Shown here piece by piece: positions 252-3,310 of a stretch of 5,043 nucleotides of DNA. The notes under the pieces were generated by a model. It was not told where the DNA came from. It worked only from the letters and a program-made list of their open reading frames with translations, and ran no database searches. This DNA is from Pseudomonadota bacterium (lineage in GTDB: Bacteria; Pseudomonadota; Gammaproteobacteria; Burkholderiales; Burkholderiaceae), in contig JAJXUC010000205.1 in NCBI GenBank assembly GCA_021783435.1, positions 1 through 5,043 on the forward strand, given 5' to 3'. The stretch's first letter is position 1. Each line of letters begins with the position of its first letter. The position numbers and the translations under genes were made by a program.

Positions 252-836
252 TCAGATGGCTTCGCGCATGCGCCACCAGGGATCATCCTGAACGAGCTGG
301 CTGCCCACCATGCGGTCGAGCAGCCGGCCAGGATCGGTGTCCACCACCAGTGGCGCCAGAACCTCCGCGCGTACAAAGCCCTGTTCGTGGCTTTGCGCCA
401 GAAAATCCAGCAGCGGGTCGTAATAGCCTTGCACGTTGAGCAGGCCTACGGGTTTGTTGTGGTAGCCAAGCTGGCGCCAGGTCCACACCTCGAACAACTC
501 CTCCAGCGTTCCCAATCCCCCGGGGAGGGCGATGAAGCCGTCGGCATAGTCGGCCATGAGCTTCTTGCGTTGGTGCATGTTCTCGACGATGTGCAGCTCG
601 CTCAATCCCGTGTGGCCCACTTCGCGCTGCATCAAGAGTTCCGTGATCACGCCCACGGCACGGCCACCGGTGGCCAGGGCGGCGTCGGCCGTGGCGTTCA
701 TCAGGCCGACGCTGCCGCCCCCGTAGATCAGGGTCATCGCCCGGCTGGCGATCTCGCGTCCCATGGCCGTCGCGGCCTCGACATAGCCTGGGTCGGCTCC
801 GGTGCTGGAGCCGCAATAGACACATACTGCATGCAT
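252..836 (-). CDS. LOG-family / TIGR00730 Rossmann-fold nucleotide phosphoribohydrolase
   Basis: Seen: 194 residues from ATG at 836-834 to TGA at 254-252. The N-terminus MHAVCVYCGSSTG is the usual start of this family. A glycine-rich IYGGGSVGLM follows at about 37-46. The family signature PGGLGTLEE (105-113) and the upstream MHQRK (87-91) supply the conserved Arg90 and Glu113 of the active site. Known: LOG enzymes split cytokinin-type N6-substituted or plain nucleoside 5'-monophosphates into free base and ribose 5-phosphate. Many bacterial members are labelled 'lysine decarboxylase-like', which is a misnomer. The frame stays open 14 codons upstream to 878, but the shorter start fits the family and follows GAAGG (851-847, 10 bases before ATG). 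That motif overlaps the dgkA stop codon, so the gene is probably last in the operon and translationally coupled. The in vivo substrate cannot be read from the sequence. Confidence 0.92.
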   Translation of the reverse strand: MHAVCVYCGSSTGADPGYVEAATAMGREIASRAMTLIYGGGSVGLMNATADAALATGGRAVGVITELLMQREVGHTGLSELHIVENMHQRKKLMADYADGFIALPGGLGTLEELFEVWTWRQLGYHNKPVGLLNVQGYYDPLLDFLAQSHEQGFVRAEVLAPLVVDTDPGRLLDRMVGSQLVQDDPWWRMREAI

Positions 837-846
837 GGAAACTCGG

Positions 847-851
847 CCTTC
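847..851 (-). promoter_or_regulatory. Ribosome binding site of the LOG gene, inside the dgkA stop region
   Basis: GAAGG on the minus strand overlaps the dgkA TGA (852-850) and lies 10 bases before the LOG ATG. It favours the start at 836 over the longer open frame and suggests termination-reinitiation coupling. Confidence 0.6.
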
Positions 852-1230
852 AAAAAAAGCGCGGCAGCAAGATCGCAAGCCACACCAAAGCGCAAAGCAG
901 CAAGGTTAGCAAGACGGCGGCACTCCCGAGGTCCTTGGCGGTTTTGCTCAGGTCGTGGCGCTCCAGCGAAACGCGGTCCACGGTGTATTCGACGGCGGTA
1001 TTGAGCAGCTCGACCACCAGGACCAGCAAGACGGAGCCGGCCAATAGCGCGCGCTCGGTGCCGTCGTTGCCGAGCCAGAAGGCCAGCGGCAGCATCACGA
1101 GGGTCAGAAGACCCTCCTGCCGGAAGGCGGACTCGGTGCGCCACGCGGTGCGGATGCCGCTGGCCGAATTGCGCACGGCTTGCGCAATGCGGGCCAGCCC
1201 GGACTTGTTCTTGTAGGGATGCGGAGTCAA
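850..1230 (-). CDS. dgkA: Diacylglycerol kinase DgkA (prokaryotic integral membrane type)
   Basis: Seen: 126 residues, close to the about 120 typical of the family, with three hydrophobic helices (about 41-55, 62-82, 103-122). Residues matching the E. coli catalytic set are present at a constant +5 offset: Glu33 in RTESAFRQEG, Glu74/Asn77/Glu81 in VELLNTAVEYTVD, and Lys99-Asp100 in TAKDLGSAAV. Known: the trimeric inner-membrane enzyme phosphorylates diacylglycerol with ATP to phosphatidic acid, classically recycling diacylglycerol from osmoregulated glucan synthesis. The start is TTG (1230-1228) after a weak GAAAG 7 bases upstream. It gives an N-terminus (HPYKNKSGLARI) like other members, and no better ATG is in frame. 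The neighbours are a GT4 glycosyltransferase 63 bases upstream and the LOG gene 13 bases downstream. With an upstream phospholipase C-like gene, its substrate may come from that enzyme (inference). Confidence 0.95.
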   Translation of the reverse strand: MTPHPYKNKSGLARIAQAVRNSASGIRTAWRTESAFRQEGLLTLVMLPLAFWLGNDGTERALLAGSVLLVLVVELLNTAVEYTVDRVSLERHDLSKTAKDLGSAAVLLTLLLCALVWLAILLPRFF

Positions 1231-1293
1231 ATGCAGGCTTTCAGGAAGGCCGTGCCTGATCGGGGGGCGAAGGGGGTTGCGGTCGTGACCGGT
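1231..1293 (-). other. Intergenic gap between the glycosyltransferase and dgkA
   Basis: These 63 bases are the longest spacer inside the downstream operon. A short imperfect palindrome, cggtcgtgaccg (1280-1291), lies next to the glycosyltransferase stop. There is no T tract and no convincing -35/-10 pair, so read-through into dgkA is the simplest view. The dgkA frame stays open across the gap without an ATG. Confidence 0.4.
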
Positions 1294-2322
1294 TCAAGCC
1301 TCGACCCCAGTTGGCGCAGGTTTCTCGGCGGCTTGTTGCAGGTGAAGAAGGAATTGTGACGTCGCACGCTGCCAGGTGAACTGACGGGCGTGCGCCACGG
1401 CGTTTTGTCGCGGAATGCGCAGCGCGGCCAGGCATGCGGCGCGCAGATCTTCGTCCAGCACGCCGGCCGGGGCGTCGCCGATCACGTCCACCGGGCCGGT
1501 CACGGGGTAGGCGGCCACCGGGCAGCCGCAGGCCAGCGCCTCGATCAGCACCAGGCCGAAGGTATCGGTGCGGCTGGGGAAGACGAAGACGTCAGCGCCG
1601 GAATAGACCTCGGCGAGGCGGTCTTGCGAGAGCACACCGAGGAAGCGCACTTGCGGATGCTCGCGGCGAATGCGCTCCAGTTCGGGTCCTTCGCCCACCA
1701 CCCACTTGGTGCCGGGCAGGTCGAGCTTGAGGAAGGCGTCGATGTTTTTTTCCACCGCCACGCGTCCGACATAGAGAAAGATCGGCGGGTCACCCTCCAG
1801 GCGCTGGCCTTGGCGCGGGAAGAACACCCGGCTGTCCACACCGCGCGACCAGATCGCCAGGCGCGTGAAGCCGCGCGCCACAAGATCGCTGCGCACGACT
1901 TGCGTGGGCACCAGGGTGATGCGTGCGGCATTGTGGAACCAGCGCAGATAGGCGTAGGTCCAGGACAGCGGGATGCCGAACCGGGCTTTCACGTATTCCG
2001 GGAAGCGTGTGTGATAGGCGGTCGTCAACGGGATGTCCAGATGCAAGGCGGCGCGGCGCGCGGCCAGACCCAGGGGGCCCTCGGTGGCGATATGCACGAC
2101 ATCCGGGCTGAAGCTGGCGATGCGCTGCATCACCAGCCGCCTCGGACGCCAGCTCAGGCGGATTTCCGGATAGGTGGGGCAGGGGACGGTGCGGAACAGG
2201 CCGGGTTCGATCACCTCGACCTCTTCGCCCTGGCTGCGCAGGTGTTCGATGGTTGTCTTCAGCGTGCGGACGACGCCATTGACTTGAGGACTCCAGGCGT
2301 CGCTGACGATCAGGATGCGCAT
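1294..2322 (-). CDS. GT4 family glycosyltransferase, Agt-like (diacylglycerol glycosyltransferase)
   Basis: Seen: 342 residues with a two-domain GT-B fold. The N-terminal acceptor domain opens with MRILIVSDAWSPQVNGVVRT, the signature of the MgtA/SQD2/Agt branch of GT4. The donor-domain motifs are LYVGRVAVEKN (183-193), VGEGPELE (209-216) and RTDTFGLVLIEALACG (251-266). In the last, the EX7E pair appears as Asp253...Glu261, a common variant in this branch. No signal peptide or TM helix is seen, so it is probably a peripheral inner-membrane protein. Known: Agt enzymes transfer sugars from nucleotide sugars to diacylglycerol under phosphate starvation and are often paired with plcP. Inferred: the same role here, because the preceding gene is plcP-like and the next is dgkA. 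Its ATG lies inside the end of the previous gene (13-base overlap), with no Shine-Dalgarno, so coupling is likely. The frame stays open upstream to 2808, but that stretch is antiphase to plcP. The sugar and acceptor are not provable here. Confidence 0.85.
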   Translation of the reverse strand: MRILIVSDAWSPQVNGVVRTLKTTIEHLRSQGEEVEVIEPGLFRTVPCPTYPEIRLSWRPRRLVMQRIASFSPDVVHIATEGPLGLAARRAALHLDIPLTTAYHTRFPEYVKARFGIPLSWTYAYLRWFHNAARITLVPTQVVRSDLVARGFTRLAIWSRGVDSRVFFPRQGQRLEGDPPIFLYVGRVAVEKNIDAFLKLDLPGTKWVVGEGPELERIRREHPQVRFLGVLSQDRLAEVYSGADVFVFPSRTDTFGLVLIEALACGCPVAAYPVTGPVDVIGDAPAGVLDEDLRAACLAALRIPRQNAVAHARQFTWQRATSQFLLHLQQAAEKPAPTGVEA

Positions 2323-3248
2323 GCTGCGGGGCTCGGCTCGGTCATGGTTGAGGAATGGCTGGCGGCAGCGCAGGCAGGTGCGCGCATCTCGGCGAGAACC
2401 TGCGGGCTGGAAGTGGCCGACTTCCACATCAGGAGCTGCATCGCGCCGTCGTGCTGTTCGGCCACTGCGGTCAGGCTTTCGACCCAGTCTCCGCAGTTGG
2501 CGTAGAGGGTGCAGCCGATGTGGCGCAGTTCGGCGCGGTGGATATGGCCGCAAACGACGCCCTCGCACTGTCGCCGTGCGGCTTCCTCGGCAAGCAACTG
2601 CTCGAAGCTGGAGATGTAGCTCACGGCGTTCTTGACCTTGCCCTTGAGGTATTGCGACAGCGACCAGTAGGAAAAGCCGAGTCGGTGGCGCACGTGGTTG
2701 AGCCAGCGGTTGAGCTTGAGGGTGAAGATGTAGAGTTGGTCGCCCAGGTGCGCCAGCCATTTGGCGTGCATCACCACGCCGTCGAACCAGTCGCCATGCA
2801 CGATCCACAGCCGGGTGCCGTCAGCTGTGACGTGCACGACATCCGACAGGACCTCGATGCCGCCGAAATGCAGTCCCACGTAGTGGCGGGCGAACTCGTC
2901 ATGGTTGCCCGGGATGAAGATGACGCGGCATCCCTTGCGGGCCTTGCGCAGCAGCTTTTGCACCACGTCGTTGTGCGCCTGGGGCCAGTACCAGCCCTTG
3001 CGCAGCTGCCAGCCGTCGATGATGTCGCCGACCAGATAGATGGTGTCGGCGTGGCAGTGCCGGAGCAGTTCCAGCAGGGCGTCGGCCTTGCAGTCGCGCG
3101 TGCCGAGATGGATGTCCGAGAGCCAGAGGGTGCGGAATTGGTACGAAGTCTCCGGATCGTCGGCCGGATCAGCCGCAGAAGCTGAAGACAGTGCTTGCGC
3201 CATCAAGTGCGCATCCGTGGGGGGGCTGCTGAGGGTGCTGGGCTGCAT
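2310..3248 (-). CDS. Metallophosphoesterase, PlcP-like phospholipase C (LpxH superfamily)
   Basis: Seen: 312 residues with all calcineurin-type metal motifs in order. These are SDIHLG (Asp45, His47), VGDIIDGW (Asp75), PGNHDEF (Asn115, His116), VHGDWFD (His151) and CGHIHRAEL (His235, His237). The stretches GTRDCKADALLELL, WYWPQAHNDVVQKLLRKARKG and CGDWVESLTAVAE match PlcP of Sinorhizobium-type lipid remodelling rather than short classic LpxH. Known: PlcP hydrolyses membrane phospholipids to diacylglycerol and a phosphorylated head group under PhoB control; the wider family is routinely annotated UDP-2,3-diacylglucosamine diphosphatase. Inferred: the PlcP role, from sequence resemblance, the adjacent Agt-like gene and the upstream Pho-box-like site. 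Start: ATG 3248 is the first in frame, and the codons between it and the alternative ATG at 3203 end in G or C 14 times in 15, so they look coded. Neither start has a good ribosome binding site. An LpxH-like activity is the alternative. Confidence 0.85.
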   Translation of the reverse strand: MQPSTLSSPPTDAHLMAQALSSASAADPADDPETSYQFRTLWLSDIHLGTRDCKADALLELLRHCHADTIYLVGDIIDGWQLRKGWYWPQAHNDVVQKLLRKARKGCRVIFIPGNHDEFARHYVGLHFGGIEVLSDVVHVTADGTRLWIVHGDWFDGVVMHAKWLAHLGDQLYIFTLKLNRWLNHVRHRLGFSYWSLSQYLKGKVKNAVSYISSFEQLLAEEAARRQCEGVVCGHIHRAELRHIGCTLYANCGDWVESLTAVAEQHDGAMQLLMWKSATSSPQVLAEMRAPACAAASHSSTMTEPSPAACAS

Positions 3249-3254
3249 GCGCGC

Positions 3255-3288
3255 ATTGCAGCGTGATCATGTGACAGGGGGATGACAC
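3255..3288 (-). promoter_or_regulatory. Candidate PhoB box plus -10 upstream of the plcP-like gene
   Basis: Read on the minus strand, 3288-3271 is GTGTCAT-CCCC-CTGTCAC. This is two 7-base Pho half-sites 11 bases apart, with one mismatch to CTGTCAT/CTGTCAC. Ten bases further on is TGCAAT (3260-3255), 4 of 6 to the -10 consensus. A box of 18 bases, a gap of 10 and then a -10 is the layout of the E. coli phoA promoter. The central CCCC is a weakness, because the spacer is usually AT-rich. Transcription would start near 3248, leaving almost no leader before the first ATG or about 45 bases before ATG 3203. Confidence 0.5.
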
Positions 3289-3294
3289 CGACAA
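3266..3294 (-). promoter_or_regulatory. Alternative sigma-70-like promoter for the plcP-agt operon
   Basis: On the minus strand TTGTCG (3294-3289, 4 of 6 to the -35 consensus) and CATGAT (3271-3266, 4 of 6 to the -10) are separated by exactly 17 bases. The start would be near 3259, giving a leader of about 11 bases to ATG 3248. It overlaps the Pho-box-like site, so the two could be constitutive and regulated options, or only one is real. Confidence 0.35.
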
Positions 3295-3310
3295 CGTGTC
3301 ATCCCCCCTG
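3275..3310. repeat. Long inverted repeat between the RDD gene and the plcP-like gene
   Basis: GGGGGATGACAC (3277-3288) pairs perfectly with GTGTCATCCCCC (3296-3307) around a 7-base loop. Allowing one bulged C (3308), two more pairs form (3275-3276 with 3309-3310). It begins 8 bases after the RDD stop codon on the minus strand. There is no T tract on either side, so it is not a canonical intrinsic terminator. It may still act as a 3'-end stabilising hairpin or pause for the upstream operon. One arm contains a Pho-box-like half-site and the loop holds a -35-like hexamer, so it could also be an operator for a dimeric regulator. Confidence 0.7.

What the first reader, a model, noticed from the sequence alone, without database searches (positions are those of the whole stretch)
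850..3248. Putative phosphate-starvation lipid remodelling operon plcP-agt-dgkA in a betaproteobacterium
Seen: a metallophosphoesterase with PlcP-type sequence overlaps by 13 bases an Agt-type GT4 glycosyltransferase, followed by diacylglycerol kinase, all on the minus strand. Known: in Sinorhizobium, Agrobacterium and marine alphaproteobacteria, PlcP makes diacylglycerol from phospholipids and Agt turns it into glycolipids when phosphate is scarce. Inferred: the same pathway here. A standard annotation as 'LpxH' plus 'glycosyltransferase' would miss it. A built-in dgkA is an unusual addition worth comparing across genomes.
Basis: partly seen in the sequence, partly recalled or inferred. Interest (0 to 1): 0.75.

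Follow-up and report, generated by a model that had tools for sequence, protein, structure and literature searches.

The report
Predicted phosphate-starvation lipid-swap genes in Thiomonas
A bacterium close to Thiomonas delicata carries neighbouring genes that very probably let it swap phosphate-containing membrane lipids for sugar lipids when phosphate runs short, a known bacterial strategy that is hidden here because the key gene is usually labelled as a lipid A enzyme.

Summary
The finding holds up. The window is almost certainly Thiomonas (PlcP 97% identical to T. delicata). Minus-strand plcP (2310-3248), agt (1294-2322) and dgkA (850-1230) are real; plcP and agt overlap by 13 bases. PlcP has the GNHD block that separates PlcP/LpxH2 from LpxH (GNRD), is 58% identical to a P. 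aeruginosa PA3219-type protein and 49% to an S. meliloti one. A separate LpxH was found in 16 of 16 related genomes (14 over the cut-off). Agt is 50% identical to the P. aeruginosa Agt1-type neighbour. New evidence: a Pho box (3271-3288) precedes plcP, with a -10-like hexamer 10 nt downstream. Box and spacing recur upstream of plcP in related Burkholderiales; no agt, dgkA or lpxH gene tested reaches the same score. dgkA is not an unusual addition: it follows agt in 50 of 58 usable loci and is the only dgkA in 15 of 16 genomes, so it may be housekeeping as well as Pho-induced. This is a betaproteobacterial member of the known PhoB-controlled PlcP-Agt remodelling system. Enzyme activities, a shared transcript and lipid changes are inferred, not shown.

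The parts
2310..3248 (-). plcP: PlcP-type (LpxH2-type) metallophosphoesterase, 312 aa from the ATG at 3248
   Evidence: Pfam Metallophos; far below both LpxH cut-offs in NCBIfam, 31.6 of 190.35 and 43.1 of 134 bits; metallophosphoesterase blocks with GNHD; 58% to a P. aeruginosa PA3219-type protein, 49% to S. meliloti. The ATG at 3248 is conserved in the 4 aligned loci, the one at 3203 is not.
1294..2322 (-). agt: GT4 glycosyltransferase, predicted diacylglycerol glycosyltransferase, 342 aa
   Evidence: Pfam GT4; 50% over 338 aa to the glycosyltransferase directly downstream of P. aeruginosa plcP; 52% over 332 aa to that of Sphingomonas; one match at 1e-10 in T. delicata.
850..1230 (-). dgkA: membrane diacylglycerol kinase, 126 aa (TTG start, uncertain)
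   Evidence: Pfam DAGK_prokar 5.5e-35; 45% over 119 aa to E. coli DgkA.
2310..2322 (-). 13-nt plcP/agt overlap (translational coupling likely, inferred)
   Evidence: direct from sequence
3271..3288 (-). Pho box GTGTCAT-CCCC-CTGTCAC (12 of 14 to CTGTCATNNNNCTGTCAT; 13 of 14 if the last base of each half may be C or T)
   Evidence: recurs upstream of plcP in relatives
3255..3260 (-). -10-like hexamer TGCAAT, 10 nt downstream of the Pho box
   Evidence: xxxAAT at this spacing in 35 of 47 distinct sequences; 0 at spacings 4-9 and 11-18, 6 at spacing 19
3277..3307 (.). perfect 12-bp inverted repeat with 7-nt loop, overlapping the Pho box; perhaps an end-of-transcript hairpin of the upstream RDD gene
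   Evidence: one stem pair differs on both sides between window/L001 and L002/L003 (my reading). It was not reported as a terminator by the pattern scan.
252..836 (-). LOG-family (TIGR00730) gene, 13 nt downstream of dgkA; possible fourth cistron, no role in the pathway claimed

Best explanation
When phosphate is scarce, PhoB binds the Pho box upstream of plcP and switches on plcP-agt, probably with dgkA and perhaps the LOG gene. PlcP cleaves membrane phospholipids to diacylglycerol plus a phosphorylated head group that can be recycled. Agt adds a sugar (glucose or glucuronate, by analogy with P. aeruginosa and Agrobacterium) to the diacylglycerol, making phosphate-free membrane glycolipids. 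DgkA converts surplus diacylglycerol back to phosphatidic acid, as in housekeeping. Shown here: gene identity, catalytic motifs, a separate LpxH in relatives, a conserved Pho-box promoter. Inferred: the activities, the shared transcript and the lipid change.
For: PlcP not LpxH; a separate LpxH in 16 of 16 related genomes, 14 over the curated cut-off. Agt. Pho box, C/T allowed at the last base of each half: at least 12 of 14 within 300 nt upstream of plcP in 47 of 79 loci, against a mean of 0.18 in 60 rounds of dinucleotide shuffles; 54 of 81 within 400 nt. At that score: 0 of 16 lpxH genes, 0 of 63 agt and 0 of 52 linked dgkA genes within 500 nt; one of each reaches 11. Spacing to the -10 is 10 nt in 35 of 47 distinct sequences, the geometry stated for E. 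coli in PMC1906773 (passage). PhoB over its cut-off in 6 of 6 genomes searched, T. delicata included. T. delicata has pstS, phoU, phoR, ppk and ppx genes together with phoB, and a pstS Pho box ATGTCATATGATTGTCAC like its plcP box GTGTCATCCCCTTGTCAC. In one Caldimonas, one Roseateles and one Mitsuaria record plcP is followed by ppk1, polyphosphate kinase.
Against: No expression or lipid data. 13 of 81 loci score under 11 of 14 for a Pho box, among them T. intermedia L014 at 10. Sites with up to 3 mismatches are common in the T. delicata genome (65+75, against 23+20 for the reversed pattern), so the box in one genome alone would prove little. The loci are the best 80 of 589 candidates and are not independent: 30 of the 81 are Burkholderia or Paraburkholderia. 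The root between PlcP and LpxH is unresolved: a tree with the window beside all 17 LpxH rows is not rejected (AU p 0.285), although grouping it with the two Thiomonas LpxH rows is (p 5e-65). The window's own genome is not held. 18 of 81 loci, some on short contigs, have no agt of at least 45% identity beside plcP.
Confidence: 0.88

Rival explanations
1. The phosphoesterase is a lipid A enzyme (LpxH) and the neighbours make cell-surface sugars; no lipid remodelling.
For: Nearly all names given by sources among the 120 listed homologues are UDP-2,3-diacylglucosamine diphosphatase, hydrolase or LpxH; the best sequence and fold matches in the PDB are LpxH; a tree with the window beside all LpxH rows is not rejected.
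Against: GNHD instead of GNRD; far below the LpxH cut-offs; an LpxH-type gene in 16 of 16 related genomes; Pho box on plcP, none at 12 of 14 on 16 lpxH genes. PMC3087551 (passage) reports that P. aeruginosa LpxH2 did not replace E. coli LpxH.
Confidence: 0.03
2. PlcP-Agt remodelling is real, but dgkA is only a neighbour with its own housekeeping role and promoter, not a part of the Pho response.
For: Sole dgkA in 15 of 16 genomes; no Pho box of its own at 12 of 14; the gap to agt is 124-492 nt in Burkholderia, Paraburkholderia and Ralstonia-type loci; dgkA lies away from plcP in the Comamonadaceae and Sphaerotilaceae genomes searched.
Against: The gap is 9-86 nt, measured from the end of the agt match, in all but one (L014, 248) of the Thiomonas and nearest unnamed loci counted; in L002 the agt stop at 6234 lies beyond the start of the dgkA match at 6231. 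Same strand in all 52 loci with a dgkA match. No sigma-70-like promoter in the window (weak, 0.6 expected by chance). DagK was enriched in phosphate-starved P. putida BIRD-1 (PMC5082522, passages).
Confidence: 0.4
3. Agt glycosylates something other than diacylglycerol (another lipid or a surface glycan), and the PlcP diacylglycerol goes elsewhere.
For: GT4 enzymes are diverse and the substrate cannot be read from sequence; NCBIfam gives no family above its cut-off.
Against: 50% identity and the same gene order as P. aeruginosa plcP-agt1, whose Agt1 was sufficient for monoglucosyldiacylglycerol in E. coli (PMC8528852, passages); overlap with plcP and the Pho box.
Confidence: 0.08

Closest known systems
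P. aeruginosa plcP-agt1 (PA3219-PA3218)
   Same: Overlapping plcP-agt pair, Pho box reported upstream, GNHD-type PlcP; 58% and 50% protein identity
   Different: In the record fetched the next gene is on the opposite strand and annotated adenylate/guanylate cyclase; no dgkA follows. A second Agt (PA0842) is described there; T. delicata has one Agt match. That the fetched genes are PA3219-PA3218 is inferred from length, neighbours and gene order.
Sinorhizobium meliloti PlcP (SmLpxH2)
   Same: 49% identity, same motif
   Different: No glycosyltransferase is listed beside plcP in the record fetched, whose gene table may be incomplete. That this is the characterised PlcP is inferred from length (281 aa) and recall of its neighbours.
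SAR11 and Erythrobacter plcP-agt (type 2 clusters of PMC4796936)
   Same: plcP followed by agt, putative Pho boxes in plcP clusters (section 13 read)
   Different: Alphaproteobacterial; 'diacylglycerol kinase' has 0 occurrences in that paper's main text
LpxH (UDP-2,3-diacylglucosamine diphosphatase)
   Same: Metallophosphoesterase fold and metal-ligand blocks; best PDB matches
   Different: GNRD instead of GNHD, separate clade in the tree, separate gene in the related genomes

Membership tests
PlcP / LpxH2 | Metallophosphoesterase blocks D-Xn-GD-Xn-GNH(E/D)-Xn-H-Xn-GHXH | tested here: met
   Block residues invariant in 16 aligned sequences; motif as given in PMC3087551 (passage)
PlcP / LpxH2 | His, not Arg, in block 3 | tested here: met
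   GNHD in all 26 PlcP-like rows including the window; GNRD in all 17 LpxH rows
PlcP / LpxH2 | Groups with the P. aeruginosa and S. meliloti PlcP-type proteins rather than with LpxH | tested here: met
   LpxH (17) and PlcP-like (25) split with 100/100 support; window with the two Thiomonas LpxH rejected. Caveat: root open, AU p 0.285 for the window beside all LpxH
PlcP / LpxH2 | Genome has a separate lipid A hydrolase | tested here: met
   16 of 16 related genomes, 14 over the cut-off; the window's own genome is not held
PlcP / LpxH2 | Phospholipase C activity | not testable with these tools
   needs biochemistry
PhoB regulon | Conserved Pho box with a -10 element 10 nt downstream | tested here: met
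   13 of 81 loci score under 11 of 14
PhoB regulon | Induction under low phosphate, lost in a phoB mutant | not testable with these tools
   needs expression data
Agt (diacylglycerol glycosyltransferase) | GT4 protein homologous along its length to a characterised Agt, beside plcP | tested here: met
   50% over 338 aligned columns (of 342 aa) to the P. aeruginosa Agt1-type protein; 13-nt overlap with plcP
Agt (diacylglycerol glycosyltransferase) | Makes MGDG or GADG | not testable with these tools
   needs expression and lipid analysis
DgkA | Small DAGK_prokar protein related to E. coli DgkA | tested here: met
LpxH | Above the NCBIfam LpxH cut-off, GNRD in block 3 | tested here: not met
   31.6 of 190.35 bits; GNHD

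The most novel reading that the evidence does not exclude
In Thiomonas and Burkholderiaceae the Pho response co-induces a phospholipase, a glycosyltransferase and a diacylglycerol kinase from one promoter, making diacylglycerol a controlled branch point. Agt drains it to phosphate-free glycolipid, while DgkA returns surplus (or, on phosphate return, all of it) to phosphatidic acid. PlcP plus DgkA would then form a cycle that strips phosphorylated head groups while the lipid backbone is kept.
Probability: 0.35. Interest if true: 0.55.

Novelty: new member of a known kind. Interest (0 to 1): 0.42.

Why it matters
The papers seen here describe PlcP-Agt lipid remodelling in alpha- and gammaproteobacteria and other marine groups. 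This places it, with promoter evidence, in Burkholderiales, where the gene is named LpxH. It suggests a simple annotation rule (GNHD plus Pho box is plcP; GNRD is lpxH) and predicts glycolipid membranes in phosphate-starved betaproteobacteria. The steady dgkA linkage makes the fate of the diacylglycerol testable.

Tried and rejected
LpxH identity: rejected (the one result that does not reject it is the AU p of 0.285). Pho box as a chance match: rejected by shuffles, antisense strand and five neighbour-gene controls, by lpxH of related genomes and by spacing to the -10; the single-genome pattern count alone would not have excluded chance. A Pho box of dgkA's own: none at 12 of 14 in 52 linked loci (one at 11), best score 10 among 8 unlinked copies from 7 genomes. 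Start codon at 3203 instead of 3248: not favoured. Structure: AlphaFold model from 16 sequences, mean pLDDT 79; the 14 best PDB matches are LpxH; no solved PlcP was listed, so it adds fold only.

Papers: ten searches ran (two searches found none). By title and start of abstract, none of the papers listed is about plcP-agt in Betaproteobacteria; this covers the held open-licence library only. PMC3087551 already placed the lpxH/lpxH2 duplication before the beta-gamma split (passage), so members in Betaproteobacteria are implied there. The B. cenocepacia phosphorus-stress proteome paper (10.1111/1462-2920.15451) is not held, so prior mention there cannot be excluded.
Full report
WHAT IS THERE. 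The window is almost certainly Thiomonas: its phosphoesterase is 97% identical to T. delicata DSM 16361 and the gene order matches that genome from the DUF3619 gene to the PII gene. A LOG-family gene starts 13 nt after dgkA. The window's own genome is not held, so genome-wide statements rest on relatives.

PLCP, NOT LPXH. NCBIfam scores are far below the LpxH cut-offs (31.6 of 190.35 and 43.1 of 134 bits). The protein is 58% identical over 236 aa to a 270-aa P. aeruginosa protein that is followed, with a 4-nt overlap, by a glycosyltransferase, and 49% over 281 columns to a 281-aa S. meliloti protein. Those lengths equal those given for PaLpxH2 and SmLpxH2 in PMC3087551 (passages); that they are PA3219 and the characterised S. 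meliloti PlcP is my inference from length, neighbours and gene order. PMC3087551 and PMC5016852 (passages) give the test: block 3 carries Arg (GNRD) only in LpxH and His elsewhere. The window and all other PlcP-like rows (26 in all) have GNHD; all 17 LpxH rows (16 from related genomes, one from E. coli) have GNRD. A tree of 42 rows splits the two sets with 100/100 support. Holding the window with the two Thiomonas LpxH rows is rejected (AU p 5e-65). Against this: holding it with all 17 LpxH rows is not rejected (p 0.285); I read that as the open root and the long branch between the sets. The 17 betaproteobacterial PlcP rows group together with 88/92 support, not starred. A separate LpxH was found in 16 of 16 related genomes (chosen from the 80 loci), over the curated cut-off in 14 and just under in two, 188.5 and 185.1 of 190.35 bits.

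AGT. The glycosyltransferase is 50% identical over 338 columns to the one beside P. aeruginosa plcP and 52% over 332 to the one beside Sphingomonas plcP. In P. aeruginosa Agt1 alone was sufficient for monoglucosyldiacylglycerol in E. coli (PMC8528852, passages). Sugar and acceptor of the Thiomonas enzyme are inferred.

PHOSPHATE CONTROL. Upstream of plcP lies GTGTCAT-CCCC-CTGTCAC (3271-3288, minus strand), 12 of 14 to the consensus CTGTCATNNNNCTGTCAT quoted in PMC8528852. In 79 of the 81 loci with at least 300 nt upstream, a sense-strand match of at least 11 of 14 occurs in 38; 100 rounds of shuffles give a mean of 0.56, the antisense strand 1. Letting the last base of each half be C or T, 47 of 79 reach 12, against a mean of 0.18 in 60 rounds. 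Windows of the same size upstream of agt (64), dgkA (52), LOG (43), RDD (34) and DUF3106 (40) give none at 11 by the strict count. Within 400 nt and with C/T allowed, 54 of 81 reach 12 and 68 reach 11 (two of the 81 have less than 200 nt); of 16 lpxH genes from the related genomes none reaches 12 and one reaches 11. In the same 16 genomes plcP reaches 12 in 11 and at least 11 in 15 (my count from the list). The 54 give 47 distinct 50-base sequences; 35 of them carry xxxAAT exactly 10 nt after the box, none at spacings 4-9 or 11-18, and 6 at spacing 19. PMC1906773 (passage) states that E. coli Pho boxes lie 10 bp upstream of the -10. In the window the hexamer is TGCAAT (3255-3260), followed by an ATG at 3248 that is conserved in the 4 aligned loci, so transcription may begin at or very near the start codon (inference). 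PhoB is over its cut-off in 6 of 6 genomes searched. In T. delicata it lies in a region with pstS, two transport permeases, phoU, phoR, ppk and ppx (pstB not checked), with Pho-box matches upstream of pstS and ppk and at the 5' end of an OlsB-like acyltransferase frame. Caveats: 13 of 81 loci fall under 11; the loci are related; and in one genome the motif alone is not specific (140 matches against 43 for the reversed pattern).

DGKA. DgkA is 45% identical over 119 aa to E. coli DgkA. Of 58 loci (window included) with agt of at least 45% identity beside plcP and at least 1 kb beyond it, 50 have dgkA within 700 nt; all 52 dgkA matches in the loci are on the plcP strand. Measured from the end of the agt match, the gap is 9-86 nt in Thiomonas and the unnamed loci nearest it except L014 (248), 124-151 in Ralstonia-type, 183-348 in Burkholderia and 288-492 in Paraburkholderia loci. 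In L002 the agt stop (6234) lies beyond the start of the dgkA match (6231), so the two genes overlap. It is the only dgkA in 15 of 16 genomes and has no Pho box of its own at 12 of 14, linked or not. So it is neither a unique addition nor a dedicated second copy: most likely the cell's one diacylglycerol kinase has come to sit behind a Pho promoter. There is precedent for diacylglycerol kinase in this response: DagK was enriched with PlcP under phosphate depletion in P. putida BIRD-1 and is called PHO-dependent in the discussion, though the passage listing proteins absent from the phoBR mutant does not name it; whether that DagK is of the DgkA type is not stated in the passages I saw (PMC5082522).

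VARIATION. In 18 of 81 loci, some on short contigs, no agt at 45% identity or more is beside plcP. In one Caldimonas, one Roseateles and one Mitsuaria record the next gene is ppk1. Six such genomes were searched for Agt: one has a 57% homologue elsewhere, two have 39-42% relatives, three none at 1e-30. Other partners or other end lipids are therefore likely there (inference).

VERDICT. It is a betaproteobacterial member of a known system, with a steady dgkA neighbour that is worth an experiment.

Noticed in passing
L130:12831-13736 (T. delicata, minus strand): OlsB-like ornithine acyltransferase (157.8 bits to NF052554, below its cut-off of 350) beside ppx, with Pho-box matches at the 5' end of its open frame (13697-13747; the true start is uncertain, the OlsB match begins at residue 62): Thiomonas may make ornithine lipids under low phosphate too.
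   Followed up: partly
3277-3307: Perfect 12-bp hairpin (folding z -3.8) between the RDD gene and plcP whose arm contains one Pho half-site; one stem pair differs on both sides between window/L001 and L002/L003. Possibly a terminator sharing bases with the PhoB site, though the terminator scan did not report it.
   Followed up: partly
L069:4911-8012, L080:4986-8048, L114:3920-6986: plcP directly upstream of ppk1 in Caldimonas, Roseateles and Mitsuaria; in Mitsuaria on a plasmid record with a Ppx/GppA-family gene next to it.
   Followed up: partly
L112 (NZ_CP137508.1) and two further P. aeruginosa plasmid records: plcP on records labelled plasmids, in L112 with agt and chromosome-like neighbours; may be excised or mislabelled chromosome stretches. 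Only L112 was opened.
   Followed up: no
L018 and L020 upstream of plcP: Ralstonia plcP genes carry three to four tandem Pho half-sites at 11-bp spacing, about 335-357 nt before codon 38.
   Followed up: partly
252-836: LOG-family (cytokinin riboside 5'-monophosphate phosphoribohydrolase-like) gene packed 13 nt behind dgkA; nearly 1 kb behind dgkA in the Ralstonia and Burkholderia loci looked at, with a TetR-family gene between in L018.
   Followed up: partly
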